IMG/VR virus record: IMGVR_UViG_3300020121_000321
Span: 1-28,588 of that record
Strand: one strand, 5' to 3'
Length of the DNA stretch: 28,588 bases
From: a virus
The notes below the pieces were generated by a model. The model was given only the letters and a program-made list of their open reading frames with translations, made no database searches and was not told where the DNA came from. Below, piece after piece: positions 1 through 16,786 of this stretch. Numbering within the stretch: position 1 is the stretch's first letter; each line of letters opens with the position of its first letter. The position numbers and the translations under genes were made by a program.

Positions 1-1
1 C

Positions 2-235
2 GACTACGTCCCGATGCCCGACGGGCGGCTCGACGTCGCCGGGGCCACCTGGGTCGACGCCATCGACCTGGCCGCCAACCACACGCCCGGCCTCGGGCAC
101 GAGCTGAACCACGTCCGCACCGGCACCGGCCACGCCGGCTGGTGCGTCGACTTCGAGCCCTGGCAGGAGCAGGTGCTCGGCTACGAGTCCCGCAGCTACC
201 TCGGCTGTCCCAACCCCCACGGAGGAACACCATGA
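2..235 (+). CDS. HExxH-motif protein, C-terminal part (gene cut by window edge)
   Basis: The reading frame is open to the left edge, so only the last 77 residues are seen. Visible residues 33-37 read HELNH, the HExxH signature in which two His bind zinc and Glu is catalytic in metallopeptidases. A Glu about 25 residues further on (in LGYESRSYLG) could be a third ligand, and aromatic residues surround it. The rest of the protein, and so its family, cannot be judged. The stop overlaps the ATG of the next gene (ATGA), so the two are translationally coupled in the early operon. A zinc peptidase-like role is inferred from the motif alone. A chance HExxH is possible. Confidence 0.6.
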   Translation, partial: DYVPMPDGRLDVAGATWVDAIDLAANHTPGLGHELNHVRTGTGHAGWCVDFEPWQEQVLGYESRSYLGCPNPHGGTP

Positions 236-465
236 AGCAGAACCAGAGCAAGCACACCCCGGGGCCGTGCGGACACGGCGACTTCTGGCAGCAGGCTTGC
301 GGCGCGTGTCTGACGGAAGCACTCGAAACGGTCCGGGCGCTCCTCGGCCCTGTCGAGTCCTTCTACATGACCCAGGACGGGCGCTCAGCCCACACCCGGA
401 ACGCACAGGCGGCAGTCGAACGCGCCCGCGCCCTCCTGGCCCGCGTCGATGGGGGTGGCAAGTGA
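232..465 (+). CDS. Small Cys/His protein, 77 aa, unknown function
   Basis: The start is the ATG overlapping the preceding stop. It has a strong GGAGG Shine-Dalgarno six bases upstream, so the longer frame beginning at 142 is not used. The N-terminal third holds a Cys-x-His pair followed by a Cys-x2-Cys pair (residues about 12-29), spaced like a small zinc-binding knuckle. The C-terminal half is a likely amphipathic helix rich in Ala and Arg. The frame ends with GTGA, overlapping the next gene. I do not recognise the family. The gene call rests on the ribosome site, coupled overlaps on both sides and the absence of a competing frame. Confidence 0.7.
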   Translation: MKQNQSKHTPGPCGHGDFWQQACGACLTEALETVRALLGPVESFYMTQDGRSAHTRNAQAAVERARALLARVDGGGK

Positions 466-635
466 GCGAGTCCATCGGCGACTACTACGACCGCAAGCGG
501 CGCGAGGGCAACGAGGCCTGGCACCGCTACCTGGAGCACCGAGCGCACTGCACCGAGTGCCGCGAGCTGCTCCATTGCCGCGAGGCGACGAAGCTGAAGA
601 CCCGCGCCATCGACGCGGGCAACACAGGAGACTGA
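462..635 (+). CDS. 57-aa protein with HxxxCxxC motif
   Basis: The start is GTG at the GTGA overlap with the previous stop. No other in-frame start fits the operon spacing. The protein is highly charged at its N-terminus and has His-x3-Cys-x2-Cys in its middle (HRAHCTEC), followed by two more Cys/His positions. This spacing is the one used by zinc-binding anti-sigma factors (ZAS domain), but those are longer and this protein is too short for confident assignment. It could equally be a simple zinc knuckle. An 87-base gap with a weak hairpin follows before the next gene. Confidence 0.65.
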   Translation: MSESIGDYYDRKRREGNEAWHRYLEHRAHCTECRELLHCREATKLKTRAIDAGNTGD

Positions 636-722
636 AGGACCCCGCCGGGGGAGTACCCGGCCCAGCCCGCCACTCACGCCCTTGGGCAAGGCTCAACCGA
701 AGCACATGCACGGAGGCAGCAC
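636..722 (+). other. Intergenic gap with weak hairpin and strong ribosome site
   Basis: This is the first non-overlapping junction of the left arm. Bases 644-661 form a six-pair GC stem (GCCGGG/CCCGGC) with a six-base loop and no T-run. A GGAGG site lies just before the next ATG. No recognisable promoter was seen. It may be a start point for the transcript carrying the DUF932 gene, but this is not shown by the sequence. Confidence 0.3.
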
Positions 723-1829
723 ATGAAGACCGGAAAGTCGTTGCAGGAGTTGGCAGTCGAGATTGAGCGTCAGGCGAACACCAAGCGGGACCTCGTCGCG
801 CCGGTGGAGAAGTTGCGGTTCATCGTTGAAGGCAAGGCGGTGAACGAGGACGAGGTCGAGCTGGCGGTGGCGAAGAAGGACGGCACCACCGACTACCTCG
901 GCATCAACCAGCTGGCGCACTCGCAGATCGCGGAGTACGTCGGCATCCCGCAGCCCTACTACAGGCGGCTCCTCGCCGAGGACCCGAGGCTGCTGGAGCA
1001 GAACGTGAACCGCTGGCTGCCGGCGGTGAAGGACGACCGCCGGCTGGTGAGGACGCTGGACGGCAAGGTCCGCGCGTTCCTCTCCGACAAGTACCGGCCC
1101 CTCGACAACGAGGAGCTGGCCGAGGCGGTGCTCCCGGTGCTGCTCGACCGGAAGCTGTCCATCCTCTCCTGCGAAATCACCGAGCGGCGCCTCTACATCA
1201 AGGCGGTCGACGAGCGGATCCTGCAGGACGTCCCGACGGGCAAGGCGCTCGGTGACGGCTCGCACCACTTCTTCGACACCATCAGCCCCGGCATCGTCAT
1301 CAGCAACAGCGAGGTCGGCTTCGGCGCGACGGACATCTCCGCCAGCGTCTTCACCCGGGCCTGCACCAACCTGGCGCTGCTCGGCACGCTCATCCGCAAG
1401 ACGCACGTCGGTGCTCGCATCCAGGCGGGCGACGACGCCTACGCGCTCTTCACCGACCACACCAAGGCGCTCACCGACAAGGCGGCGCTGAACCAGATCC
1501 GCGACGTGGTCGCCGCCGCGTTCGACGAGGCGCGCTTCGCCGCCCACGCCGACAAGCTGAAGGAGGCGGCCGGGGTGAAGTTCGAGGTCAAGGACGTCAC
1601 CGAGGTCGTCGAGCGGTTCGGCAAGAAGTACCAGCTCACCGATGGCACCAGGCAGGGCATCCTGACCCGGCTCATCGAGGGCGGCGACTTCACCAAGTAC
1701 GGGCTGCACGCCGCCGTAACCCGCCACAGCCAGGACGTCGAGGACTACGACACCGCGACGGAGCTGGAGCGCCTCGGCGGTCAGGTCATCGACCTCAAGG
1801 CCACGGAGTGGAAGGCGGTGGCGGCATGA
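723..1829 (+). CDS. DUF932 family phage protein
   Basis: This 368-residue protein has the length and layout of the DUF932 (phage/plasmid-like TIGR03299) family. It has an N-terminal helical region, then a central stretch including ALLDRKLSILS-type and FLSDKYRPLDNEEL segments, and a C-terminal helical half. FLSDKYRPLDN closely resembles the conserved family core. DUF932 proteins are common in phages and plasmids and are often near DNA-metabolism genes. Their biochemical function is not established. The start is ATG with GGAGG eight bases upstream. It is coupled to the next gene by an ATGA overlap. It is the largest gene of the left arm. Confidence 0.85.
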   Translation: MKTGKSLQELAVEIERQANTKRDLVAPVEKLRFIVEGKAVNEDEVELAVAKKDGTTDYLGINQLAHSQIAEYVGIPQPYYRRLLAEDPRLLEQNVNRWLPAVKDDRRLVRTLDGKVRAFLSDKYRPLDNEELAEAVLPVLLDRKLSILSCEITERRLYIKAVDERILQDVPTGKALGDGSHHFFDTISPGIVISNSEVGFGATDISASVFTRACTNLALLGTLIRKTHVGARIQAGDDAYALFTDHTKALTDKAALNQIRDVVAAAFDEARFAAHADKLKEAAGVKFEVKDVTEVVERFGKKYQLTDGTRQGILTRLIEGGDFTKYGLHAAVTRHSQDVEDYDTATELERLGGQVIDLKATEWKAVAA

Positions 1830-2044
1830 AGTCCTTCAAGTTCGAGGTGCAGACCCTCGGCGACGGGGAGCACTGGAGCAGCAACGGCCAGCGCTTCACG
1901 ACGAAGGAGGCGGCCGAAGTCTCCGCGCGGGACCTCCACTCCCGCTGGACGCTGGTCGTCGCCTGGCGCGTCGTCGACTCGGACGACGAGCCGAACCAGA
2001 CCGAGCCCACCATCAAGGGCGCGGGCCACCGGGTGAAGCTGTGA
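1826..2044 (+). CDS. Small conserved phage-type protein, 72 aa
   Basis: The start is the ATG overlapping the DUF932 stop. An in-frame ATG 18 bases upstream lies inside the DUF932 gene and has no ribosome site. The pattern W-x2-N-x3-F-x-T-x2-E-A, then L-x2-RW and WRVVDSDD, recurs in many small phage proteins that I know only as hypothetical, often in early operons. It is acidic at the C-terminus, probably a single small alpha/beta domain. No catalytic motif is visible. It is coupled to the following gene by GTGA. Function is unknown, and the context suggests a regulatory or DNA-metabolism accessory role. Confidence 0.75.
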   Translation: MKSFKFEVQTLGDGEHWSSNGQRFTTKEAAEVSARDLHSRWTLVVAWRVVDSDDEPNQTEPTIKGAGHRVKL

Positions 2045-2535
2045 GCCGCGATCCGGGCGACGAGTCGCTCAAGTGCCGCGTGCCGGGGTGCCGCAGGCGA
2101 GTCCTCTCGCCCGACACCCCGTGCATGCTCCACCGCAGCCACGACCTCGGCGACGACGACAAGCCGAAGCGCGGCTTCCCGCCGTCGTTCGACCAGCTGC
2201 GCGCGATGGGCAACACGCCGCCCGTCAAGCGCTCGATGCTGAAGGAGCAGACGGACGCGGTGGCCGAAGCGCTCGGCCGCAAGCGCACGCCGGACCCGGA
2301 GCGCGCCGCTGCTGGCATCGAGGCAGCGCGGGCGACGGTGCAGCAGCTGCAGGCGGTGGAGCGCTTTCACCGTCACGTCGAGCAGGCCGCCCTGGCCGCG
2401 TTCAGGGAGATGCTCGCGCAGCTCGGGCAGGACCACGACCTCCGGTTCTGCGAGCCGGACGGGATGCAGCAGCTGGCGGAGTCGGCCTGGAACTGGGGCC
2501 TCGTCTTCGCCGAAGCGCGCAAGCCGGAGAAGTAG
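2041..2535 (+). CDS. Protein with N-terminal Cys/His finger and helical tail, 164 aa
   Basis: The start is GTG at a GTGA overlap. Residues about 12-33 carry Cys-x4-Cys, then Cys-x2-His (CRVPGC and CMLH), a compact zinc-finger-like arrangement. A basic linker follows and then a long, mostly helical region rich in Ala, Gln and Glu (residues about 75-135) that could form a coiled coil. The final part contains WNWGLVFAEA. I do not recognise the family. The combination of a finger and a helical dimerisation-like region would suit a nucleic-acid-binding protein, which is inference. It ends in TAG, and a perfect inverted repeat begins 17 bases later. Confidence 0.7.
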   Translation: MSRDPGDESLKCRVPGCRRRVLSPDTPCMLHRSHDLGDDDKPKRGFPPSFDQLRAMGNTPPVKRSMLKEQTDAVAEALGRKRTPDPERAAAGIEAARATVQQLQAVERFHRHVEQAALAAFREMLAQLGQDHDLRFCEPDGMQQLAESAWNWGLVFAEARKPEK

Positions 2536-2551
2536 GCCGAACGTAGCAGGC

Positions 2552-2580
2552 CCGGGACAACCGTTTACTGGTTGTCCCGG
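2552..2580 (+). repeat. Perfect inverted repeat (dyad 1)
   Basis: An 11-base arm, CCGGGACAACC, is mirrored exactly by GGTTGTCCCGG around the seven-base loop GTTTACT. No T-run follows, so it is a poor fit for an intrinsic terminator. Its inner core GACAACC/GGTTGTC, and the GT directly after the left core, recur in the dyad at 3385-3414. It lies between the stop of one gene and the start of the two-gene cassette. It could be an operator, an RNA-binding hairpin or a weak terminator. Confidence 0.8.
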
Positions 2581-2615
2581 TGTCTGCGGCGCTCATGCCG
2601 CACGCAGCAACACGC

Positions 2616-2816
2616 ATGGCAAAGAAGCTGGAAGCCGAGGACCGGAAGCGCATCCTGATCGCGCTCCGCAGCTACTTCAGCACCGTCGAGAACATGCTGT
2701 ACCACGGCTCAGCGCCGGTTCAGATGCTGGGGCGGAAGGAGATTGAGGCAGGGGCCAAGCTGTACGCGCTCATCGACGGCGGGGGCAGCCTCCTCGTCGC
2801 GGCGAAGGGGGAATGA
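2616..2816 (+). CDS. 66-aa protein, first gene of dyad-bracketed cassette
   Basis: Three in-frame starts exist: GTG at 2580, ATG at 2595 and ATG at 2616. The last gives a protein starting MAKKLEAEDRKR and is preferred, because upstream codons overlap the dyad and look non-coding, but no start has a good Shine-Dalgarno. The protein is one charged N-terminal helix, a middle hydrophobic stretch (LRSYFSTVENML) and a second helix with a Gly-rich turn. I do not recognise the family. The stop overlaps the next ATG (ATGA), and a GGGGGA ribosome site for the next gene sits inside its last codons. Confidence 0.6.
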   Translation: MAKKLEAEDRKRILIALRSYFSTVENMLYHGSAPVQMLGRKEIEAGAKLYALIDGGGSLLVAAKGE

Positions 2817-3373
2817 CGATGCTGCTCGATTCGGGAATCGTGAACCCGGCAGTGGAGGAGCAGGCCCGCGAGGTGCTCAAGGAAATCAGGCCGGCGGCAG
2901 AGAACGTCCCCGGGCTGAACATCGAGCTGCTGCTGGAGACGCTGGCCTTCATCCAGGCGGAGCGCGGGCTGTGGGACCAGAGCAGCTACTACACGCGCAA
3001 GTACCTCGCTCCGGAGTGCCGCACCTCCTGCTGCTTCGCCGGGTGGGCGGTGGCGATTCATGAGGGGCGGGACCCGTACGACGACAACAGCGAGGAGCGG
3101 CGCCAAGCGCTGCATCTGAGCGGCGGCAAGGACCTCGTCCCCTGGCGAGCAATCGCGTACCTGGGCATCAACGAGAGGGAGGCAGCCGTCCTGTTCCGGG
3201 CGAGCAACAGCCTCCCGGTGATCCAGCAGGCGGTCGAAGCCATCGTCGAGGGGAAGTACCGGCGGGACCCGGTGCCGCTGACACCAGGGATGACGCAGCT
3301 CGACTGGGAGCGCCACATGGAGGACCTGGAGGCGACGTCCTTCTACGGCGCAAACATCAGCTTCCGCTACTGA
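2813..3373 (+). CDS. Phage protein with CxxxCCFAGWA motif, 186 aa
   Basis: The start is the ATG overlapping the previous stop. Residues 69-79 contain Cys-x3-Cys-Cys-Phe-Ala-Gly-Trp-Ala. A Cys-x3-Cys-[hydrophobic]-Ala-Gly-His/Trp-Ala signature is common in hypothetical proteins of actinophages and other GC-rich phages, usually preceded, as here, by a Trp-containing helix (LWDQSSYY). The function of that group is not known to me. The C-terminal half contains AIAYLGINEREAAVLF, a helical pattern typical for these proteins. Together with the 66-residue gene before it, this forms a cassette lying between two matching inverted repeats, which suggests an independently acquired or independently controlled unit. 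Confidence 0.75.
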   Translation: MTMLLDSGIVNPAVEEQAREVLKEIRPAAENVPGLNIELLLETLAFIQAERGLWDQSSYYTRKYLAPECRTSCCFAGWAVAIHEGRDPYDDNSEERRQALHLSGGKDLVPWRAIAYLGINEREAAVLFRASNSLPVIQQAVEAIVEGKYRRDPVPLTPGMTQLDWERHMEDLEATSFYGANISFRY

Positions 3374-3384
3374 CGTGACGCAGG

Positions 3385-3414
3385 CCTCTGACAACCGTCA
3401 CGGGTTGTCAGAGG
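3385..3414 (+). repeat. Perfect inverted repeat (dyad 2)
   Basis: A 12-base arm, CCTCTGACAACC, is mirrored exactly by GGTTGTCAGAGG around a six-base loop, GTCACG. The inner seven bases match dyad 1, while the outer bases differ yet stay paired. Structure, not sequence alone, is therefore kept. It starts 11 bases after a stop codon and ends 36 bases before the next ATG. There is no T-run, only TTCTGG. Confidence 0.8.
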
Positions 3415-3450
3415 TTCTGGGGCACTTTCAGTCCCCACGGAGGAACGCAC

Positions 3451-3975
3451 ATGAGTGGAACCGTAAACGGACCGCTGGCGAAAGCGGTGCGGAGGCCGCA
3501 GGGCAAGGGTGAGAAGCGGGACAAGTTCGTCCTCGACTTTCTGAGGGCGCACCCGGAGCAGCTGCCGCCGCTGAACGTCTTTGAAGAGCAGCTGCCCGGG
3601 GCGAAAATCGAGGTGCTACGCCAGGCCCTCATCACGGACGGCTGGGTCGAGAACCAGGAGTACGACAAGGCCCACCCGGAGCTGAAGCGCTCCAAGCTGC
3701 CGGCGCACTGCCTGCGCACGTCGCTCTGGCGGCTGTACAGGCGGGACCAGCTCCCGTCGCGACCGAAGGGGCGGCCCGCTGGCAAGGTGGTGGTGAAGTC
3801 GAAGCTGGCAGCGAAGAAGGTGTCTGTCTTCGACGTGGGCATCGCCGGCGGCAAGCTGAAGCTGTCGCCAGCCCACCCGGCGGACATCGACCGGCGGGCG
3901 CTCGTCATCGAGGCGGCACGCACCGGGCTGAAGGTTCGCATCCTGGTCGACGGCGTCATCGAGGTGCAGCCGTGA
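3451..3975 (+). CDS. Basic protein of unknown function, 174 aa
   Basis: The start is ATG with GGAGG seven bases upstream. The leader CCCCACGGAGGAAC is identical to that before the gene at 232. The N-terminal half (residues about 20-95) alternates helices and a strand and ends with a run of Arg/Tyr (LWRLYRRDQ), which could be a winged-helix-like DNA-binding fold, but no diagnostic motif is visible. A Lys-rich linker follows, then a C-terminal domain with an ILVDGVIEVQP ending. The protein is strongly basic. I do not recognise the family. It is the first gene of a second run of coupled genes (3451-6009). Confidence 0.7.
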   Translation: MSGTVNGPLAKAVRRPQGKGEKRDKFVLDFLRAHPEQLPPLNVFEEQLPGAKIEVLRQALITDGWVENQEYDKAHPELKRSKLPAHCLRTSLWRLYRRDQLPSRPKGRPAGKVVVKSKLAAKKVSVFDVGIAGGKLKLSPAHPADIDRRALVIEAARTGLKVRILVDGVIEVQP

Positions 3976-4445
3976 GGACGTACAGCCAGATCGGACCGCA
4001 GAAGCCCATCAAGGACGCGACGGAGGAGCTGACTCTCACCGTCGAGGAGAACATGCTGAAGCTGGGCAAGCCGAACGACCCGCTCCGGTGTGTCCTCGCC
4101 ATCGCCGCGCGAGCAGCGCTCCGGGACAAGAAGCTGCGCAGCGTGCAGGTGCTGCGCACCGTCAGCTACCTGGAGTTCCCGGACGAGGTGCGCCGGTACT
4201 TCAACGACCAGCTCACCACCGCGATGGTCACCGTCTACGACCTGAGCGGGCGCTTCACCGCCGGCGAGTACCGGCTCGTTCCCGTGCCGGCGTCCCACTC
4301 CGCCGAGGCGCTGGCGGAGCGGAAGAAGGAGAAGAAGAAGAACGGCGAGAAGAAGAAGCGGGCGAGCCGGTCCAAGCGGATGCGTCCGCGCGGCGAGCAC
4401 CGCGTGGCCTGGATGCAGTGCGCGCCCGAGGAGGAGAAGCCGTGA
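3972..4445 (+). CDS. Protein with Lys/Arg-rich C-terminal tail, 157 aa
   Basis: The start is GTG at a GTGA overlap with the previous stop. Residues 1-110 look like a folded alpha/beta domain. Residues about 115-140 are almost wholly Lys, Arg and Glu (KKEKKKNGEKKKRASRSKR), a typical unstructured nucleic-acid-binding tail, and the last 15 residues are mixed. No catalytic motif or known family is recognised. The tail could be a codon-composition effect, but the Lys codons are AAG throughout in a GC-rich genome, as expected for real coding. It is coupled to the next gene by GTGA. Confidence 0.7.
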   Translation: MRTYSQIGPQKPIKDATEELTLTVEENMLKLGKPNDPLRCVLAIAARAALRDKKLRSVQVLRTVSYLEFPDEVRRYFNDQLTTAMVTVYDLSGRFTAGEYRLVPVPASHSAEALAERKKEKKKNGEKKKRASRSKRMRPRGEHRVAWMQCAPEEEKP

Positions 4446-4645
4446 CCGACACCAAGGTGCTGCTCGTCTCCCCGTCAGAGTACGAGGTCATCCGGTTGGC
4501 GCTGCTCAACCTGCGCGTGTCGAACCACAGCTACGTGCAGAGCCTGAAGAACAAGGGCGGTGAGCTGCGGCTCGTCGCCGAGCAGCGCATCACCACCATC
4601 GACGAGCTGCTGGACAAGCTCGTGGTGCAGGGAGCCCGGCCATGA
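4442..4645 (+). CDS. Small helical protein, 67 aa
   Basis: The start is GTG at a GTGA overlap. A longer frame reaching back to 4088 overlaps the previous gene entirely and is a shadow. The protein has a short N-terminal strand (KVLLVSPSEYEVIRLALLNL), then two predicted amphipathic helices with regular Leu/Ile spacing. No Cys or catalytic motif is seen. Small helical dimers of this kind are common in phage early operons. I cannot assign a function. It ends with ATGA overlapping the next gene. Confidence 0.65.
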   Translation: MTDTKVLLVSPSEYEVIRLALLNLRVSNHSYVQSLKNKGGELRLVAEQRITTIDELLDKLVVQGARP

Positions 4646-4833
4646 AGGACACGCTGGAGAACCCTCTCAACTACGTCCACTGCTCCCACTGCCACGCCAC
4701 CGTTCCCCGCGACGAGTGCGCGCGGGTGGCGGGCACCCTCGACCGGTGGAAGTGCATCACCTGCATCGAGGAGGACGAGCAGAGCGGGCGTCAGTCCCAG
4801 GACGTAGAGGAAGAGGCGAGGAGGAAGCCATGA
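4642..4833 (+). CDS. Small zinc-ribbon-like protein, 63 aa
   Basis: The start is the ATG of an ATGA overlap. The protein has Cys-x2-Cys (residues about 14-17, CSHC) and a second Cys-x2-Cys about 24 residues later (CITC), the two knuckles of a zinc ribbon, with one extra Cys between (DECARV). The C-terminal 15 residues are a charged acidic/basic tail. Zinc ribbons of this size in phages bind nucleic acids or recruit partners. Which applies here cannot be told. It is coupled to the next gene, whose ribosome site GAGGAGGAAG is within its final codons. Confidence 0.7.
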   Translation: MKDTLENPLNYVHCSHCHATVPRDECARVAGTLDRWKCITCIEEDEQSGRQSQDVEEEARRKP

Positions 4834-5606
4834 GCACTGAGTCAGCACTCGCGGTGGTGTCTCCACCGGGAGAAGTCGAGAGGTACCAGTCGCAGCTGCG
4901 CGTCGCAGCGGCGGTGAAGCAGTTCGTCCTCGCGAAGCACCCGACGGGCAAATACAAGCACCTCACGCAGATCGGCAAGGGTCTGCACTGCAACATCGAG
5001 GTGTGGCGGGCCATCGCTGCCACCGCCGGCTACGCGCTCGGGGTGACGGAGGTCCGCCAGTGCGGCGACGGCTGGGAGGCCGACGGCGTCGTCCGGCGTG
5101 TCACCGACGGCGTGGTGGTCGGCTCGGGCAGCGGCTACTGCGATGCCCTGGAGCAGTTCGGCAAGGGGAAGGCCACCTACGCAATCCGTGGGATGGCTCA
5201 GACCCGAGCCCAGTCCAGGGCAGCGGCGGGCGTGTTCGGGCAGCTCGTGGTGTTCATCCACGAGGACCTGCGTGCAACGCCGGCCGAGGAGATGACCGAC
5301 CTCGCCGAGGCGCCGGTCAACCGGACGCCGCCGTCGCAGCTGCGCAGCCGGGTCGCGGAGGCGGTGGTCTCGGGACACAACACCAGTGCTCCGCAGCCGA
5401 AGCTGCCCAAGCCCATCGGGCAGCGGGCCCAGCTCGACCACGACGCGGTGACGGGCGAGGTCGTCGAGCCGAGCAGGGTGGTGGACGAGGAAGCGCTCCT
5501 CGCTGCCTACCGGCAGGCCCCCAACGCGACCGCGCGAGCACGGGTGCTTCAGAACGTCCCCTCAGACGTGGCGGAGCGAGTCCGCCGGGGAGGGAGCCGT
5601 GCATGA
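4830..5606 (+). CDS. MAQTRA-motif phage protein, possible DNA recombination/replication accessory
   Basis: This is a 258-residue protein starting at an ATGA overlap. Residues 46-155 form a conserved core: IGKGLHCNIEVWRAIA, then GWEADGVVRR, then GMAQTRAQSRAAAG (121-134) and ATPAEEM (149-155). I know this order (GWEA, MAQTRA, TPAEEM) from hypothetical proteins of actinophages and other GC-rich phages, often beside recombination or replication genes. A role in single-strand handling or annealing is a guess. Residues 165-258 are a variable, Pro/Ala-rich region ending in a helical segment. Immediate neighbours are a zinc-ribbon protein and another Cys-pair protein. Confidence 0.65.
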   Translation: MSTESALAVVSPPGEVERYQSQLRVAAAVKQFVLAKHPTGKYKHLTQIGKGLHCNIEVWRAIAATAGYALGVTEVRQCGDGWEADGVVRRVTDGVVVGSGSGYCDALEQFGKGKATYAIRGMAQTRAQSRAAAGVFGQLVVFIHEDLRATPAEEMTDLAEAPVNRTPPSQLRSRVAEAVVSGHNTSAPQPKLPKPIGQRAQLDHDAVTGEVVEPSRVVDEEALLAAYRQAPNATARARVLQNVPSDVAERVRRGGSRA

Positions 5607-5860
5607 AGCCAGTCCACAGACTGACCCGCTGCCCGGTGTGTATGAGGACGGTGACGGCGGAGCTGCTCCACGAGGACAACGGGAAGTGGACGTTCAAGCC
5701 GCACACGCTCAACGAGGTCGACCCGGAGTGGTGCGGCGCCGTCGACGGGCGGTGGAAGCTGCACAGTCAGTATCTCGGCGGAAGCGGGAGCTGGCACGAC
5801 GCGTGGGTGCGGACAAGCGGAAGCGACACGAAGGACCGCCCAGTCAGGTCGAAGGGCTGA
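5603..5860 (+). CDS. Cys-pair protein, 85 aa
   Basis: The start is ATG at an ATGA overlap, with GGGAGG upstream. A CPVC pair lies at residues about 9-12 and a single Cys near residue 46 (EWCGAV), with several His, so a zinc-binding fold is possible but incomplete. The C-terminus is polar and rich in Gly, Ser and Arg. The last 58 bases overlap the start region of the helix-turn-helix gene in another frame, which leaves some doubt about one of the two boundaries. The family is not recognised. Confidence 0.6.
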   Translation: MKPVHRLTRCPVCMRTVTAELLHEDNGKWTFKPHTLNEVDPEWCGAVDGRWKLHSQYLGGSGSWHDAWVRTSGSDTKDRPVRSKG

Positions 5861-6009
5861 CCTTCCCCGAGGCGATGGCGTACCTGGGCGTGAGCCGCAA
5901 CACGCTCTACGACTGGGTCCACCGGGGGCTCATCCCGTACCGCTGGGCCGGCGACCACTGGCGGCTCCGCTTCGACAAGGCGGAGCTGCAGCGGTGGTTG
6001 GACAGGTAG
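5803..6009 (+). CDS. Excisionase/MerR-type helix-turn-helix protein, 68 aa
   Basis: Residues about 19-67 match the HTH_17/excisionase-type winged helix: LTFPEAMAYLGVSRNTLYDW (helix-turn-helix), then RGLIPYRWAGDHWRLRF (wing) and ELQRWL (final helix). Proteins of this kind bind DNA as excisionases (recombination directionality factors) or small regulators. The start is uncertain. GTG at 5803 is chosen because no ATG precedes the domain without running deep into the previous gene, and it lacks a clear ribosome site. Its stop lies five bases before a strong terminator, so it closes the coupled operon. A regulator is at least as likely as a true excisionase, since no integrase is seen. Confidence 0.75.
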   Translation: MGADKRKRHEGPPSQVEGLTFPEAMAYLGVSRNTLYDWVHRGLIPYRWAGDHWRLRFDKAELQRWLDR

Positions 6010-6014
6010 CACCA

Positions 6015-6049
6015 AGGGCGGGCTCCTCCGGGGGCTCGCCCTTTTTTTT
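6015..6049 (+). terminator. Strong intrinsic terminator
   Basis: The GC-rich hairpin AGGGCGGGCTCC / GGGGCTCGCCCT is followed at once by eight T residues. This is a textbook rho-independent terminator on the + strand. It starts six bases after the stop of the helix-turn-helix gene. The endonuclease gene begins just 17 bases downstream, so its expression must come from readthrough or a promoter within or beyond the hairpin. Confidence 0.9.
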
Positions 6050-6065
6050 GGACCGGAGGTTTACG

Positions 6066-6383
6066 TTGTCACTTCTGATGCCGGGCGACCTGCCCACCGC
6101 AGCGACGCTGAAGAAGTACGGGTGGACCGAGAGCGACTACCGGTACCAGTGGAAGCTGCAGGACGGGCTCTGCGGGCTCTGCGGGCAGGAGCTGGAGGGC
6201 AAGCGGGTCAACATCGATCACGAGCATGTCCGGGGCTGGAAGCGGATGAGGCCCGAGCGGCGCCGCCTCTTCATCCGCTCGCTGCTGCACGCGCGCTGCA
6301 ACCGCTTTCTGCTCGGGCCCTGCTACTACGGCTTCCGGGCGGAGCACTTCCGCCTCGCTGCCGACTACCTGGACCGGTACTGA
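6066..6383 (+). CDS. Endonuclease VII-like (HNH-fold) nuclease, 105 aa
   Basis: The start is taken as TTG, because a perfect GGAGG lies six bases upstream. The next ATG, four codons later, would be too far (18 bases). Residues 36-39 are CGLC, 51-54 DHEH, and 71-79 RSLLHARCN. This is the order of recombination endonuclease VII (T4 gp49 type), CxxC, DHxH, LLCxxCN, with the usual ending AADYL. This family resolves branched DNA such as Holliday junctions during packaging or recombination. One of the four zinc Cys is replaced by His (His75). Some relatives are simple HNH homing-type nucleases, so the exact substrate is open. Confidence 0.8.
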   Translation: MSLLMPGDLPTAATLKKYGWTESDYRYQWKLQDGLCGLCGQELEGKRVNIDHEHVRGWKRMRPERRRLFIRSLLHARCNRFLLGPCYYGFRAEHFRLAADYLDRY

Positions 6384-6616
6384 ACGCGGGAGACGACGCC
6401 CCTTCCGGCCAACAGACCGGGCCACTCGGCGCACGGAGGCACGCCGGGACGCCGCTCCCGCACCAAGGGTTAGAGCACCCAGAGTCAGAGCCGTCGACAC
6501 CTGGCGAGCAGGCTGCTGCAACTTCTCCACAAGTTGCTCCTGCTTGTTTCCCACAGGCCTACAGGCGTACCTCCCGCGCGCCGTCATGGAGACGGCAGCA
6601 ACGGAGGAACCAAGTG
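6384..6616 (+). other. Non-coding gap with a small hairpin
   Basis: No plausible gene is seen in this 233-base stretch. Bases 6518-6537 form a seven-pair hairpin, GCAACTT / AAGTTGC, around CTCCAC, followed by a weakly T-rich TCCTGCTTGTTT, a possible modest terminator for the nuclease gene. Two sequences loosely like DnaA boxes (TTCTCCACA and TTTCCCACA) occur here, but each departs from consensus. A GGAGG site ends the gap. A promoter for the last + strand gene could lie here but is not recognisable. Confidence 0.4.
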
Positions 6617-6925
6617 ATGCCAGGAATCGACACGCAGTCCCCGCAGTTCCAGACGTTCGGCGATGTGCAGGGCGGCCAGAACCAGGGGGCGAGCTGGCTC
6701 CGGCAGGCGGAGCAGTTCGTCGGCGGCCTGCGGCAGCAGATCTACCAGCTGCATCAGGCGGTGAATCAGTTCCGCAACCCCGACAACCGCGAGACGGTGC
6801 GCTCGGCGGTGAACATCGCGGAGAACGCGCTCACGCAGATCGAGACCTGCCTGAGCGCCGAGAAGCAGTACGCAGGGACGCAGGAGACCGGCGAGCGCTA
6901 CCGCACGATGTCGCAGGGTAGGTAG
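6617..6925 (+). CDS. Gln-rich helical protein, 102 aa
   Basis: The start is ATG nine bases after GGAGG. An adjacent in-frame GTG three bases upstream is also possible. The protein has a polar N-terminus (residues 1-25, Gln/Gly-rich), then two long helices (about 26-60 and 68-95) with regular hydrophobic spacing. There is one Cys and no motif that I recognise. It stands alone after a 233-base gap and is the last gene of the + arm, facing the end of the late operon. It could be a virion or regulatory helper, and the sequence gives no basis to choose. Confidence 0.65.
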   Translation: MPGIDTQSPQFQTFGDVQGGQNQGASWLRQAEQFVGGLRQQIYQLHQAVNQFRNPDNRETVRSAVNIAENALTQIETCLSAEKQYAGTQETGERYRTMSQGR

Positions 6926-7012
6926 CCGGTCACGCGCAGCTCCGGCGGTCCTCGGTATCCGGGGGTCTGGTGCGGCCTCCGTGGTTCCTCGCCTGCCCGC
7001 CGGGGCTCGCGT

Positions 7013-7327
7013 TTAGTTGCACTCCTCGACCTCGCCGTTGATGACGCAGAACCCGCCGCAGTCGCCGAAGTCGAGGGCATGGACCCCGTTCGCCGCGCGG
7101 AGAGTGAGTCCTGCAACCCCTCCCCGGGACACCACCTCCGCCAGCGGACCGGGGCCCGTGATGGGCGGGTCCCCGTCGTAGGGGTTGAGGAAGCGGATGA
7201 CGTGCCGGTGCCGGCGGTCCGTCGGGCAGTCGAAGCTGATGCCGGTGTTGTAGCGGGGGCGCGGAGCGGGCAGCCACCGCACGTTCAGCGAGGTGAGCGG
7301 CCACCGCTGGGGCTTGGGGATGGGCAC
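7013..7327 (-). CDS. DUF6527-like small protein, 104 aa
   Basis: The start is GTG at 7327, two bases after the preceding stop and seven bases after GGAGG. A longer frame to 7348 begins inside the previous gene without a ribosome site. The pattern FDCP, then HVIRF, a loop, GLTLRA, and then DCGGFCVINGEVEEC resembles DUF6527 proteins, which carry a Cys pair, a His strand and a final HF-I-x-G-x-V strand. In other genomes these small proteins accompany phage or defence-like loci and their role is not known. Here it is the last gene of the late operon, next to the lysis genes. The family match is moderate because some usual Cys positions differ. Confidence 0.6.
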   Translation of the reverse strand: MPIPKPQRWPLTSLNVRWLPAPRPRYNTGISFDCPTDRRHRHVIRFLNPYDGDPPITGPGPLAEVVSRGGVAGLTLRAANGVHALDFGDCGGFCVINGEVEECN

Positions 7328-7328
7328 T

Positions 7329-7928
7329 TCACCACCTCCAAGACACACCCGCCCCGAGGAAGACTCCTCGCTCGCCGCCCAATGCCATGACCTGGACGCC
7401 GAACGGCCCGCCGCTCCATCCCACCTGCCCGCCGACCAGGAGGTCCCTGGACGTCACCCCGTACAGCGCAGCCGGCCCAGCGCTCCAGTGCCTCTCAGCG
7501 GCCCCAGGAGCGACGACGACGCTCGCCGAGGCCTCTGCCTCCACCCCGAGGTCGAACGTCGCGTCACCGGCCACCTGGCCGCTCAGGCGCACGTCCGGCA
7601 CGAGAATGGTGACCAGCTGGGGCTCGGCCACGCCGGCGTCGCCCGGCAGGTAGCGGATGGGCCCCGGCACTGTGACCGTAGACCAATGCTCGATGGTCGC
7701 CTGACACTCGGCACGGCTTGTCACACCTGCGTCCACCTGCAGCTGGACCCCGGCGTCAGCAACGCACTCCACCGGCAGGCCCCGGGCCTTGCGCCAGCCT
7801 TCCAGCGTGACGCCAGCGGTGACCCCGAGAGCGGTGGCTCCCAGGAGGGCGATGGCCAGGTGTTTGCCGGCCAGGCTCACCATGGAAGCGCACCCACGAC
7901 GGAGAGCCGCTGGCAGCTCACGCTTCAC
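7329..7928 (-). CDS. Membrane-anchored protein in lysis cassette, 199 aa
   Basis: The GTG start at 7928 overlaps the end of the transglycosylase gene by 11 bases. A later ATG at 7883 (MVSLAGKH) is possible. Residues about 23-42 form one hydrophobic membrane segment after a basic N-terminus, so the remaining 155 residues should lie in the periplasm. That part has alternating hydrophobic strands rich in Ala, Gly and Val, and ends in SWRW, recalling the aromatic end of outer-membrane strands. No lipobox or clear coiled coil is present, so it is not a typical Rz. Context suggests a role in envelope disruption, but function is unproven. Confidence 0.65.
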   Translation of the reverse strand: MKRELPAALRRGCASMVSLAGKHLAIALLGATALGVTAGVTLEGWRKARGLPVECVADAGVQLQVDAGVTSRAECQATIEHWSTVTVPGPIRYLPGDAGVAEPQLVTILVPDVRLSGQVAGDATFDLGVEAEASASVVVAPGAAERHWSAGPAALYGVTSRDLLVGGQVGWSGGPFGVQVMALGGERGVFLGAGVSWRW

Positions 7929-8394
7929 CCCCGAACTGCAGGCGGTGAATCCTCGCGAGGACGTCCGACACGTAGTTGCGTCCCGTCGTCAGGTCGTCGA
8001 GCTGCTGGATGCTCGGGTGCTCGCGCAGGATGATGAGTTTGCCCACCTTGTAGGCCCCGGCATTGTACGCGGCGCAGGCGCAGGCCACGTCGTCGGAGAA
8101 GCGGAGCATGTGCTTCTGCAGCAGCTCGGCGCCGAAGAGGATGTTGAGCAGCGGGTCCTGCCACTTCTCCGGGTCGCGGCAGAAGTCGGGGAAGGCGCGG
8201 TCGTCGATCTGCATCAGCCCGTGCCCGTGCCCGGCGTCGCCCTTGCCCTTCGGGCCGCGCGGCTTCAGCGCCATCCCCCCGAGGGACTCCCGGTCCATGA
8301 CGGCGCCAATCAGCTCCGGAGCGAGCTGGTACTTCTCTGCGGCGGTGTTCACCTCGACGCGCCATTGCTGCAGGCGCGGGGGCCAGCTCCTCAA
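7918..8394 (-). CDS. Endolysin: lytic transglycosylase (SLT/goose-type lysozyme fold)
   Basis: TTG at 8394 is preferred. It overlaps the previous stop as TTGA and follows GGAGG by four bases, whereas GTG at 8418 has no ribosome site. In the 158-residue product, Glu36 lies in VMDRES (catalytic Glu of this fold), GLMQID is at 59-64 and AYNAG at 109-113. These are the three classical motifs of family 1/SLT transglycosylases, which cut the MurNAc-GlcNAc bond of peptidoglycan. No signal peptide is seen, so export would rely on a holin. Neighbours on both sides are membrane proteins, forming the lysis cassette. Confidence 0.88.
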   Translation of the reverse strand: MRSWPPRLQQWRVEVNTAAEKYQLAPELIGAVMDRESLGGMALKPRGPKGKGDAGHGHGLMQIDDRAFPDFCRDPEKWQDPLLNILFGAELLQKHMLRFSDDVACACAAYNAGAYKVGKLIILREHPSIQQLDDLTTGRNYVSDVLARIHRLQFGGEA

Positions 8395-8762
8395 CGATCC
8401 TCCTCGTCCTCCGGCCACGGGTAGGGGGCAACCTTCGGCGGCTTCGGCCCCTTCAGCGGCTCATTCTGCGGGACGACGGTGACGCGCTCGGTGGGCGTCT
8501 GCCCCATCCGGAAGCTCCACTGGCTCTCGGTGGGGATGCGCTCGATGCGCCGCTGCGCTGCCTGCGTCCGGTCGTCGAGCGTGTTCATCTTGTCGATGAG
8601 CCCGATGAGCCGCTGCCCGGTGTCCTTCGCTCCTCGGGCGTGGTCCTGCTCCAGCGCCTTCATCCGGTCCGCCATCCGCGCCGACTTGTAGGCGCTCCAC
8701 GCGGTGAGGACCGTCGCCACGCCCCCAGCGACCGCAGCGATGACGGCGGCGGGGTCGGCCAT
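8391..8762 (-). CDS. Single-span membrane protein, holin or spanin candidate, 123 aa
   Basis: Residues about 4-24 form an Ala/Val/Gly-rich membrane helix right at the N-terminus. A charged helical region follows (about 28-75, heptad-like, DRMKALEQDHARG and onward), and then a Pro-rich, acidic C-terminus. ATG at 8762 begins three bases after the fibre stop, with only a weak ribosome site. The gene lies directly before the transglycosylase. Single-span proteins with a cytoplasmic or periplasmic coiled coil at this place are often holins or inner-membrane spanins. Which one, and which way it faces, cannot be decided from sequence alone. Confidence 0.7.
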   Translation of the reverse strand: MADPAAVIAAVAGGVATVLTAWSAYKSARMADRMKALEQDHARGAKDTGQRLIGLIDKMNTLDDRTQAAQRRIERIPTESQWSFRMGQTPTERVTVVPQNEPLKGPKPPKVAPYPWPEDEEDR

Positions 8763-8765
8763 GGC

Positions 8766-9692
8766 TCAGTTCACGATGACGAAGCTGAACTTGTCGCCGT
8801 TGGAGAAGGCGCTGCCGAAGGTGACGACGAAGGAGCCCGAGGCCGGTGCCATGAGCCAGGCCGGCTTCACCGAGGAGACGCCGAACTCCGGGGTGATGAG
8901 GACGATGCTGGAGGCGGTGCAGAAGTTGTTGGTCACCGTGACGACGGTGCCGCCGCTGTTCATCGTCACGCGCCCGCAGACGTTGTTCATCGTGACGCTG
9001 GTGCCCGTCTGCGCGCCGGCCGCCGCCTTCAGCGTGTCCTGCAGGGTGAGCCCATTGCTGCCGACGGTGCAGCGGGTCGAGCCGCCAATCTTCAGCAGGA
9101 CGTTGGCGGTGGCGTCCACCACCGTCACCCCGCCGCCGACGTCCTGGATGATGGTCGACCAGCTCGGGGCGCTCCCGTTGGTGCCGAGCACCTTGCCCGA
9201 GTTGCCGGACTGGTTGGGCAGCACCGCCGAGGCGAAGGTGACGCCGTCCACGGTGAGCCCGCCGGTCACGGTGGTGGCCTGCAGCGCCGTGGTGCCCGCC
9301 GACACGGTGAGCCCTCCGGCGGTGACAGTCAGTCCTCCGGCGGTGACGGTGAGTGTGCTGGAGGTGGTGAGCGTCCCGGTGATGCTCGTCCCAGTGACGA
9401 GCCACTTCTGGATGAGCGTGCTGGTGACGCCCATGCGCACGTCGCCGGCGGCTCCGAGGTAGAGCCCCGAGGCAGGGTCGCTGACGAACGTGAGCCCCGG
9501 CGCCGACACCGAGCCGGAGATGCTCTTGAACTGAGCACTCATGTTGCCGAGGCCCGAGCGCGAGAGGCTGTCCGACATCGCCGTGGCGAGGTCGTTCATC
9601 GTGTTGTTGAACGTGGTGCTGGAGATGGTGGTCCCCGTCACCACCGGGTTCCCAGCCGCCAGCGAGTAGTTGCCCGATGCGTCGCGACTCAT
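8766..9692 (-). CDS. Tail fibre protein, 308 aa
   Basis: The N-terminus (MSRDASGNYSLAAGNPVVTG, then SLSRSGLGNM and LTFVSDPASGLY) is a phage fibre opening seen in many short-tailed phages. Residues 112-132 hold three seven-residue repeats, LTVTAGG-like, encoded by 21-base units near 9307-9348. These are typical of a triple beta-stranded shaft. Residues 161-181 carry QSGNSGKVLGTNGSAPSWST, a common fibre linker. Residues about 233-308 form a C-terminal beta domain that is related to that of the fibre-like protein at 24499-25905. The ATG start overlaps the stop of the large internal protein. The expected role is receptor contact. Confidence 0.85.
   Translation of the reverse strand: MSRDASGNYSLAAGNPVVTGTTISSTTFNNTMNDLATAMSDSLSRSGLGNMSAQFKSISGSVSAPGLTFVSDPASGLYLGAAGDVRMGVTSTLIQKWLVTGTSITGTLTTSSTLTVTAGGLTVTAGGLTVSAGTTALQATTVTGGLTVDGVTFASAVLPNQSGNSGKVLGTNGSAPSWSTIIQDVGGGVTVVDATANVLLKIGGSTRCTVGSNGLTLQDTLKAAAGAQTGTSVTMNNVCGRVTMNSGGTVVTVTNNFCTASSIVLITPEFGVSSVKPAWLMAPASGSFVVTFGSAFSNGDKFSFVIVN
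9307..9348 (-). repeat. 21-base tandem repeat inside fibre gene
   Basis: Two adjacent 21-base units, with a degenerate further copy on each side, encode the repeated LTVTAGG shaft motif. The copies differ at a few bases. Such short in-frame repeats allow slip-strand length change of the fibre shaft. Confidence 0.6.
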
Positions 9693-11458: not shown

Positions 11459-12608
11459 CGAGGACCTGCTCGGTGCCGTCGGGGAGGAGGAGCTTCGTCT
11501 TGTTCAGCGCCTTGTTGTGGAACTTCCGCGTGCCGGGCGGGAAGTCCATCCGGGTCTGCGGCTGTGGCTGCGGCGCTGCGGTAGGCTGCGGCGCGGGCGG
11601 TGGTGCGGCCGACACCGGTCGTGGCCCCGGGCCGGGCCCAGCACGGGGCACCTGCGGCGGCGCCTGGACGGGCATGGACGTGGGGATGGGCGGAGCCCCG
11701 GCGTCGGGGGCGCCTCCCATCGGCGGCGCGGCCTGGGGCGCCTGGGGACGCTGCAGCTGGCGAGGAGCCGGAGGAGCGCCGAGGGGCGCGCCGAACAGCT
11801 GCTGATTGAGGTCGGACCAGCCGCCCATCACCTCTTCGGGCACGACGCCCATCGGGAAGCCGGCGTTCTTGGCGACGGCGTTCACCGACTCGGCCTGGTG
11901 AAGGCCCCAGCCGCTCACCGTCCGCAGCCACTGGTTCTTCAGGACTGGCGAGTCGTACCAGTGCGGCCGGCTGCGCCGGAAGCCGTTCACCGCCGACTCC
12001 GAGGCCGAACCGTGCGAGACGTTGCCCATCTCCTGCAGGAGGCCCTCGGTGATGGTGTCCCAGGTCTGCGAGGGGTCCTCGCCCGTGCCGAGCTGGCCCT
12101 GGATCTTCGCCTTCAGCATGTCGTCGCGGCCGAGCTGCGCGATGGGGTAGAGCTGCGCGACGAGCCCGGGGATGTTGCCCGGCTTGCCGAACTTCTCCAT
12201 CGCCGCGAGCGCGCGGGCCTGTCCGGTGGCGCCGCGTCCGGCAGCGCGCGTGTCTGCGTTCTGCTGGTCGATGGCGAGCTTGCCCTGGTCGTACTGGCTC
12301 TTCTGGTCGAGCTGCGCCCGCTGCAGACCCTCCAGGGCGGCGCGGTGCTCCATCTCCGCCTTCAGCTCCTGCTCCTGCACCTCGTGGCCGATGGTGCCGT
12401 GCGCGGCCTGCTGCAGCGACTGGTCGGCGAGCGCCGCCTCGGTGTCCATGGCGTTGCCCACGCCGCTGAAGACCGGGTCGCCCGACATCTGCATCGCGCG
12501 CGAGAGCAGCCGGGTGTTGGCGTTCTCCGCCTGGGCAGCGCGCTGCAGCGCACGCCGCGCCTCGATGGGGATGCCCCAGTAGTCAAACTCCGTGGGCGTC
12601 TCAGCCAC
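11445..12608 (-). CDS. Probable internal virion protein with Pro-rich segment, 387 aa
   Basis: GTG at 12608 has GGAGG at good spacing and overlaps the previous stop by eight bases. Residues 1-150 are helical with many Gln, Ala and Glu, like the coiled bodies of ejection proteins. Residues about 285-350 are a low-complexity Pro/Ala/Gln stretch (PQAPQAAPPMGGAP and similar). The last 35 residues are a compact basic end, with KFHNKALNKTKLLLPDG. I recognise no family. The position between a gp14-like and a gp15/16-like gene points to an ejected or virion-associated protein. Confidence 0.6.
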   Translation of the reverse strand: MAETPTEFDYWGIPIEARRALQRAAQAENANTRLLSRAMQMSGDPVFSGVGNAMDTEAALADQSLQQAAHGTIGHEVQEQELKAEMEHRAALEGLQRAQLDQKSQYDQGKLAIDQQNADTRAAGRGATGQARALAAMEKFGKPGNIPGLVAQLYPIAQLGRDDMLKAKIQGQLGTGEDPSQTWDTITEGLLQEMGNVSHGSASESAVNGFRRSRPHWYDSPVLKNQWLRTVSGWGLHQAESVNAVAKNAGFPMGVVPEEVMGGWSDLNQQLFGAPLGAPPAPRQLQRPQAPQAAPPMGGAPDAGAPPIPTSMPVQAPPQVPRAGPGPGPRPVSAAPPPAPQPTAAPQPQPQTRMDFPPGTRKFHNKALNKTKLLLPDGTEQVLDGLL

Positions 12609-14983: not shown

Positions 14984-16786
14984 CTAGGGCCCGTTCACCG
15001 CCGAGCTGCGCACCGGGTCTCCGCCCCAGACCGCGTTGTCCCAGGTCGAGGTGTCCCAGATGGCGACCGTGCCCGGATTCGCCGTCACCGCAGTGGTGAG
15101 CGAGGTGAGGTCGTAGTCCCAGCGCAGCTGGGTAATCCAGTTCAGGTCGCTGTTGCTGGTGAGGAACTGCGGGCGGACGAAGGAGACGCGCTTGTTGTTG
15201 CTCTTGGAGTCGAGGCCCTGGAACGAGGTGAACATCAGGAAGCTGATGCCCGTGCCCGTCGTGGAGAAGACCGTCTCGTCGCGCCCGCCGCTCGCCTGGA
15301 AGAGGTAGCCGTCGGGCGTGCCGAAGTAGAGGTGGCTCTGGTAGATGCCCATCGACTGGGCACGCCGGCCCTCCAGCCGCGCCCAGCCCTTGGTCTGCAT
15401 GTTCATCGCGTACTGGACGAACGTGGTGCCATCGACCTGGGGGCAGCTGATGAGGATGGAGGTCTCGTCGGGCGACAGCTGCAGCGCCCAGTTGCGGTTG
15501 CTGGAGTTGCCCGTCACCTCGCCGGTGATGGCGTTGTCGATCTTCGCCGTCTCGTAGATGGAGCGGTCGGCGAGGCTCGCGCCCTGCAGCAGCTTCGACA
15601 GCGAGATGAGCCCGTAGTTGTTGAGGATGAGGACGTCACCGCCGGAGTCGAGCGTGAGGCGCCGCCCGGCCGGCAGCCCGGAGAAGCTCCACGTCCCGAC
15701 GAGGGTGAACTTCCCCACCGTGGACGGGTCGGTGCCGGTGTAGACCGAGATGTCCCCGGCGCTCGACAGCACGCAGAGGTTGTTCTCCACGCCCGCGCCA
15801 CCGTCCACGCTCCACCGCGCGTAGCAGCGCAGCTCTCCGCCTCGGCTCATGTTGTTGCCGAAGGGGAAGGACGTGGCCGCCCCGTAGATGAGCCCGGTGC
15901 CGAGGTACCAGCCGGTGCCCGACTGGGAGACGGTGAAGAAGAGCCGGTTCTGGAACGCGCAGACGGACGTGAAGGTGGCCGGGTCGACGCCGGAGACCTG
16001 CGTCGCGCCGCCGCCGAGCGTCACCTTCGTCCAGGTCGCCGTCGATTCGGTGTACGTGTAGTAGCCGTTCAGCTCGTCGCAGAGCGCCAGGAAGCTGCCG
16101 GCTGCAGTGGTGAACGAGGTGAAGCTGCAGTACCCGGCGACGCCGCCCGTGCTGCCCCAGCTGACGACCTTCGTCGCCGCGACGTTGAACGTCGAGCAGT
16201 CGTAGATGCCGTCGGAGGTGGCGACGAAGAGCCTGTCGTTCGCCCCGATGGCGCCGCTGTACGGGATGACGGAGCGCACCTCCATGTTCGCCGTCACGCC
16301 GCCGGTGAGAGTCGCCGCGCCCCAGCTCGCCCCGACGCCGCCCGAGGTGGTGGTGGTGATGGCGTTGCCCAGCGCCCCGGGCTGCTTGGAGGTGAAGGTG
16401 AGCGTCGTCGTCCCGGTCCAGGTGACGATGGCGGAGATGTCCGAGCGGGCGGCGAGCACCGCCTTGAAGCCGGTAATGGTGGTGGCTGCGTCGGTGTTGA
16501 AGACGCAGTTCGCCACCGGCAGCCCGCCGATGACGACCGCTGCCGTCCCCGAGGTTGGCGGAGTGAAGAGCCCCGTCGCCTGGGTAGAACCGATGTGGTA
16601 CGCCTGCGCGACGCTGCCGAGCCGAGTCTTCGCCCCGTAGGCGCTGGGGATGAGGTTGGTGAGCGCGATGCAGTTCGTCGGGTCCATCGCCGCGTACGGC
16701 GAGACCGTGTCGAGCCCTCCCACGGGCGACGGCATCTGCGTCACCTGCAGGGTCTGCTGACCCATGAGACGGGTCGGCGCGGGCAT
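14984..16786 (-). CDS. Tail nozzle protein (T7 gp12/P22 gp10-like position), 600 aa
   Basis: The N-terminus has PSPVGGLDTVSPYAAMDP, then ALTNLIPSAYGAKTRLGS. The pattern P-x-GG-x-N/D with ALxNLxP and R-x-G is a signature of the nozzle or packaged-DNA stabilisation proteins of short-tailed phages. The rest is a long run of beta strands and Gly/Ser/Thr turns (for example GANDRLFVATSDGIYD, NLCVLSSAGDISVYTG, MGIYQSHLYFGTPDGYLF), as in the beta-propeller core of such proteins. The ATG shares one base with the previous stop (TGATG). It follows the adaptor directly, as in T7 and P22 relatives. It would close the tail tube below the adaptor ring. Confidence 0.8.
   Translation of the reverse strand: MPAPTRLMGQQTLQVTQMPSPVGGLDTVSPYAAMDPTNCIALTNLIPSAYGAKTRLGSVAQAYHIGSTQATGLFTPPTSGTAAVVIGGLPVANCVFNTDAATTITGFKAVLAARSDISAIVTWTGTTTLTFTSKQPGALGNAITTTTSGGVGASWGAATLTGGVTANMEVRSVIPYSGAIGANDRLFVATSDGIYDCSTFNVAATKVVSWGSTGGVAGYCSFTSFTTAAGSFLALCDELNGYYTYTESTATWTKVTLGGGATQVSGVDPATFTSVCAFQNRLFFTVSQSGTGWYLGTGLIYGAATSFPFGNNMSRGGELRCYARWSVDGGAGVENNLCVLSSAGDISVYTGTDPSTVGKFTLVGTWSFSGLPAGRRLTLDSGGDVLILNNYGLISLSKLLQGASLADRSIYETAKIDNAITGEVTGNSSNRNWALQLSPDETSILISCPQVDGTTFVQYAMNMQTKGWARLEGRRAQSMGIYQSHLYFGTPDGYLFQASGGRDETVFSTTGTGISFLMFTSFQGLDSKSNNKRVSFVRPQFLTSNSDLNWITQLRWDYDLTSLTTAVTANPGTVAIWDTSTWDNAVWGGDPVRSSAVNGP

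What the first reader, a model, noticed from the sequence alone, without database searches (positions are those of the whole stretch)
2552..3414. Two-gene cassette bracketed by matching inverted repeats
Dyad 1 (2552-2580) and dyad 2 (3385-3414) share the inner core GACAACC/GGTTGTC but have different, still perfectly paired outer bases. They flank exactly the 66- and 186-residue gene pair. Covarying arms point to conserved structure. Neither is followed by a T-run, so simple intrinsic terminators are a poor fit. They could be operators for a phage repressor (stoperator-like), RNA-binding hairpins, or scars of cassette insertion (a moron).
Basis: seen in the sequence. Interest (0 to 1): 0.6.

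Follow-up and report, generated by a model that had tools for sequence, protein, structure and literature searches.

The report
Duplicated hairpin leader before phage genes
In a soil phage distantly related to Myxococcus phage Mx8, the two matching hairpins around a two-gene unit turn out to be parts of one longer control sequence of about 75 bases, present twice and running each time up to a gene's start codon; this looks like a little-studied kind of phage gene-start element, and here the paired changes suggest it works as folded RNA.

Summary
The dyads are real: 2552-2580 (11 bp, loop 7) and 3385-3414 (12 bp, loop 6), the only perfect stems of 10 bp or more in the window. The core pattern GACAACC-N-GGTTGTC is expected 0 times and found twice. 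Neighbouring coding sequence is not homologous. Within the hairpin, three adjacent pairs changed on both sides and still pair, while the core is unchanged. The early + strand operon has 4-nt overlaps at nearly every gene junction; only three junctions open into gaps (77-87 nt), two of them carry this element, and all three end in a CACGGAGG-type start leader. Best reading: a duplicated RNA leader/punctuation module that separates translationally coupled gene clusters. It resembles the SAS/ESAS elements of cluster K mycobacteriophages, but with RNA-type covariation that those lack. A rigid operator is disfavoured (arm spacing 7 versus 6); a U-tract is absent; acquisition by recombination cannot be tested, because no relative carrying the region was found. 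Moderate interest; function inferred, not shown.

The parts
2536..2618 (+). Copy 1 of the intergenic leader element (from after the stop codon of the 164-aa gene to the ATG of the 66-aa gene); homologous part begins at about 2546 (GCAGGCC)
   Evidence: aligns with 3374-3453 to the start codon
2552..2580 (+). Dyad/hairpin 1, 11 bp perfect stem, 7-nt loop
2601..2618 (+). Start-proximal segment CACGCAGCAACACGC-ATG, homologous to the leader at 3436 but with the GGAGG core changed to GCAGC
2616..2816 (+). 66-aa ORF, no family match
2813..3373 (+). 186-aa ORF, PHROG phrog_889 (unknown function), E 2.6e-14; overlaps the 66-aa ORF by 4 nt
3374..3453 (+). Copy 2 of the intergenic leader element (from after the stop codon of the 186-aa gene to the ATG of the 174-aa gene)
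3385..3414 (+). Dyad/hairpin 2, 12 bp perfect stem, 6-nt loop
3436..3453 (+). Start-associated segment CACGGAGGAACGCAC-ATG with intact Shine-Dalgarno core
218..234 (+). Further copy of the start-associated segment (CACGGAGGAAC, exact), ATG at 232; no hairpin
709..725 (+). Further start-associated segment (CACGGAGGCAG, 2 mismatches), ATG at 723, in the third intergenic gap; no significant fold
   Evidence: (z +0.93)
6600..6619 (+). Possible further start-associated segment (AACGGAGGAAC, 1 mismatch) before an ATG at 6617

Best explanation
The two dyads are the hairpin part of one duplicated intergenic leader element of about 75 nt in the early operon of an Mx8-like phage. Each copy lies just after the stop codon of one translationally coupled gene cluster and runs through an 11-12 bp hairpin, a short linker and a start-associated ribosome-binding segment to the ATG of the next cluster. 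The most likely action is in the transcript: the stable hairpin closes the upstream message (partial termination, 3'-end protection or a processing/binding site) and the leader starts the next cluster independently of translation from upstream. The unchanged upper stem plus similar loop, above a lower stem conserved only as pairs, suggests a protein or RNase that reads the top of the hairpin and only needs the bottom to be paired. Shown: homology of the two leaders, pairing, compensatory changes, position. Inferred: action as RNA and what it does. The element plus the two genes forms a unit that could have arisen, or could be lost, by recombination between the two leaders (inferred).
For: The intergenic regions are homologous up to the start codon and the adjacent ORFs show no clear similarity. 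Three consecutive lower-stem pairs are changed on both sides and all still pair, while 0 of 14 core positions changed. The two half-site spacings differ (7 versus 6 nt), which a hairpin loop tolerates. Among the listed + strand junctions from the ATG at 14 to the gene that starts at 5603, all but three are 4-nt overlaps; the three gaps are 87, 80 and 77 nt and all end in a CACGGAGG-type or related start segment, two of them with the hairpin. Fold z-scores are -3.5 and -3.6 for the whole leaders.
Against: Only two copies exist, so the covariation rests on one comparison; DNA-level correction of palindromes (one arm copied onto the other) can also keep arms matched without selection on RNA. The shuffle control with two sequences has no power. 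The first copy has lost the GGAGG core. No further copy or relative was found to test conservation. No transcript data.
Confidence: 0.5

Rival explanations
1. Transcription terminators that do not need a T-run: a strong hairpin plus a weak second inverted repeat ends or attenuates the upstream transcript.
For: They start within about 17 nt of the stop codon, are very stable, and weak second pairings follow. Hairpin clusters are reported to terminate with less reliance on poly-U (PMC8355165). Other viral contigs carry a GACAACC stem in T-tailed, terminator-like hairpins (L079, L115, L119, L089).
Against: The terminator scan does not report them; the same phage has an ordinary terminator with a T-run at 6014-6043. 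Full termination inside what looks like one operon would need a new promoter, and no sigma-70-type promoter was found in 1-9000. It does not explain homology through to the ATG.
Confidence: 0.22
2. DNA-binding sites (operator, stoperator or activator site) for a phage or host dimeric protein reading GACAACC...GGTTGTC.
For: Perfectly conserved symmetric core; the cluster K authors favour DNA binding for ESAS inverted repeats (PMC3203893).
Against: Spacing between half-sites differs by one base (7 versus 6); the lower stem keeps pairing, not sequence; no third complete site in the window.
Confidence: 0.15
3. Boundary of a mobile two-gene cassette (moron-like): leader plus two genes were added by recombination with a partner that carried the same leader, as with mobile regulatory cassettes.
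For: Direct repeats of about 75 nt flank exactly two ORFs, one without any family match; comparable gain or loss of single genes between short direct repeats is documented in cluster O mycobacteriophages (PMC4351075).
Against: No relative with an empty site was found, so insertion is not shown. It explains the origin, not why the arms stay paired. The two copies are diverged, so any duplication is not recent.
Confidence: 0.1

Closest known systems
Start Associated Sequences and Extended SAS (SAS/ESAS) of cluster K mycobacteriophages (PMC3203893); similar elements in cluster EF Microbacterium phages (PMC7302621)
   Same: Repeated short motif at the ribosome-binding position of some non-structural genes, in unusually large gaps, with an inverted repeat (spacer 4-13 bp) just upstream in about half the cases; here 5 candidate start segments, 2 with the dyad.
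   Different: Different sequences; far fewer copies; cluster K inverted repeats are imperfect 17-mers whose changes do not support RNA pairing, whereas here the arms are perfect and changes compensate. Mx8-like phage, not actinobacterial.
PeSLs (promoter early stem-loops) of T4-like phages
   Same: Repeated intergenic stem-loop cassette flanking small gene groups that can mediate shuffling (secondary mention in PMC4503421; original papers not held).
   Different: No promoter was detected here and the hairpin lacks a T-run; only two copies.
Cluster O 17-bp palindromic repeats of mycobacteriophages (PMC4351075)
   Same: Seven-base inverted arms; gene gain or loss between repeat copies.
   Different: Those are 34 copies with invariant arms and a fixed 3-bp centre, not tied to start codons.

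Membership tests
SAS/ESAS elements | Conserved short motif at the ribosome-binding position of several genes, flanks conserved beyond Shine-Dalgarno pairing | tested here: met
   CACGGAGGAAC or near variants before ATG at 232, 723, 2616, 3451, 6617; Mx8 has 1 such match, Mx9 0. Copy number is low, so weakly met.
SAS/ESAS elements | Inverted repeat upstream of a subset of these motifs, in gaps over 50 bp | tested here: met
   Two of the three gaps (80 and 77 nt)
SAS/ESAS elements | The cluster K consensus GGGATAGGAGCCC (or the cluster EF one) and many copies (11-19 per genome) | tested here: not met
   Different motif, at most 5 copies in this fragment
Intrinsic terminator | GC-rich hairpin followed by a T-run | tested here: not met
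   Hairpin yes, T-run no; not reported by the scan
Stoperator/operator set | Multiple sites of fixed spacing across the genome | tested here: not met
   Two sites only, spacing 7 and 6; the genome is incomplete
PeSL cassettes | Early promoter combined with stem-loop, repeated | tested here: not met
   No sigma-70-like promoter in 1-9000; a phage-specific promoter cannot be excluded
Known Rfam RNA families | Covariance-model match | tested here: not met
   No match at gathering score; only sub-threshold chance matches
Moron cassette | Empty site in a relative | tested here: inconclusive
   No relative with this region found

The most novel reading that the evidence does not exclude
A phage-specific family of RNA leader hairpins in which the upper stem and loop are read by a dedicated protein or RNase while the lower stem is free to vary as long as it pairs, so that the copies in one long transcript cannot mispair with each other; each copy marks the boundary of a translationally coupled gene cluster and serves as a recombination joint for swapping clusters.
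Probability: 0.12. Interest if true: 0.65.

Novelty: new variant of a known kind. Interest (0 to 1): 0.38.

Why it matters
Start-associated elements with inverted repeats have been described in actinobacterial phages with no known role, and RNA pairing was judged unlikely there. A similar layout in a Mx8-like phage, with compensatory changes that favour an RNA hairpin, makes the RNA-versus-DNA question testable and hints that such leaders are a wider way of punctuating phage operons and joining gene clusters.

Tried and rejected
Stricter patterns: 0 hits and 6 hits with no likeness outside the pattern. Similarity of copy 1 to the mox-p06 gap of Mx8: reached by 8% of random Mx8 stretches, rejected. 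A covariance model of the two copies found no convincing third copy in the window, Mx8, Mx9 or the portal relatives, apart from reverse-strand palindrome echoes. blastn of either leader against phages gave only 22-30 nt chance hits at E above 1. Protein searches to reach relatives of the region failed for the 186-, 174- and 258-aa proteins; the 368-aa protein found one viral contig, L123, without the element. Structure counts for the second small hairpin used misplaced columns and are ignored. Hairpin in the third gap (636-722): not significant.

Full report
Setting. The window is a whole IMG/VR virus record of 28,588 bases, linear and therefore probably a fragment. Its portal protein is 38-40% identical to those of Myxococcus phages Mx8 and Mx9 and its major head protein matches phrog_9953; L124, a 97% identical portal relative, covers only the other end. 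It is thus an Mx8-like phage; a myxobacterial host is an inference.

Observation. Both dyads are present at the stated coordinates. Pattern GACAACC-N(0-20)-GGTTGTC occurs twice, never in 100 shuffles. They are the only perfect stems of 10 bp or more in the window (expected 0.55 for 10 bp and 0.15 for 11 bp).

What is really repeated. Aligning the full gaps 2536-2618 and 3374-3453 shows homology from GCAGGCC on the 5' side of the dyad to the ATG. The part to the right of the dyads alone scores 40 against a maximum of 30 in 3000 random window stretches; the last 18 nt (ribosome-binding region and ATG) score 24 against a maximum of 18. The coding sequences upstream show no similarity and those downstream no clear one. 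So the unit is a leader that ends at a start codon, present twice, not a pair of free-standing dyads.

Pattern of change. Between copies the seven-base core arms are unchanged (0 of 14), the loop has 2 substitutions and one indel, and three adjacent lower-stem pairs have changed on both sides and still pair (CGG/CCG to TCT/AGA); the next pair out and GCAGGC are unchanged. This favours selection on pairing in the lower stem and on sequence in the upper stem. With two copies this is one comparison, and palindrome correction at the DNA level is an alternative source of matched arms.

Context. In the + strand early block, listed junctions are 4-nt overlaps except for three gaps of 87, 80 and 77 nt. 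The clusters that follow the gaps start with the 368-aa, 66-aa and 174-aa genes. Each gap ends in a CACG-AG-type start segment; CACGGAGGAAC is exact at 218 and 3436 and near at 709, 2601 and 6600, with ATG shortly after. The CAC and AAC flanks lie outside Shine-Dalgarno pairing (own knowledge of the anti-SD). Copy 1 has GCAGC in place of GGAGG, so the 66-aa gene may be poorly or conditionally translated. The 186-aa gene belongs to phrog_889 (unknown function, E 2.6e-14), with distant relatives in mycobacteriophages; the 66-aa gene has no match.

Mechanism. The favoured reading is an RNA leader and punctuation module; the operator reading suffers from the 7 versus 6 nt spacing and the absence of more sites; a classical terminator lacks the T-run, which this phage has elsewhere, at 6014-6043. 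Partial termination by hairpins alone remains possible (PMC8355165).

Known kinds. The layout is most like SAS/ESAS of cluster K mycobacteriophages: motif at the start, inverted repeat just upstream in about half the cases, in non-structural genes and large gaps (PMC3203893). There the authors found that changes in the arms do not support RNA pairing; here they do. Sequence and copy number differ, so this is filed as a variant of that kind, not a member. Gene gain or loss between short direct repeats is documented in cluster O phages.

Limits. No relative with this region was found in the collections searched, the genome is incomplete, and there are no expression data. Function is inferred.

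Noticed in passing
window 6014-6043 (+): A strong hairpin followed by TTTTTT directly after an ORF that ends at 6009: an ordinary intrinsic terminator, the only clear one in the first 9 kb.
   Followed up: partly
window 2601-2615: The Shine-Dalgarno core GGAGG of the leader is changed to GCAGC before the 66-aa gene, so this start may be weak or regulated.
   Followed up: no
L160 (Mx8) 2460-2486; L161 (Mx9) 12222-12245 and 15979-16004; L125 16722-16748: Strong hairpins without a T-run; those in Mx8 and Mx9 lie in annotated gaps between genes, so such hairpins may be common in this group.
   Followed up: partly
L079 3311, L115 2948, L119 5356, L089 5899: The same GACAACC/GGTTGTC stem occurs in T-tailed, terminator-like hairpins of other viral contigs.
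   Followed up: no
L103 13793 and L007 5546: Very long palindromes (18 and 17 bp arms) around the same core in other viral contigs.
   Followed up: no
window 723-1829: 368-aa protein (phrog_1362) has its best known-phage matches (38-42%) in Faecalibacterium phage Roos and gut phages, plus many weaker mycobacteriophage matches, and none in Mx8 or Mx9: the early block is mosaic relative to the structural block.
   Followed up: partly
L162 (JAQTUE010000041.1): A contig filed under a Paludibacter assembly encodes a major head protein 48% identical to this phage's; possibly a stray phage contig in that assembly.
   Followed up: no
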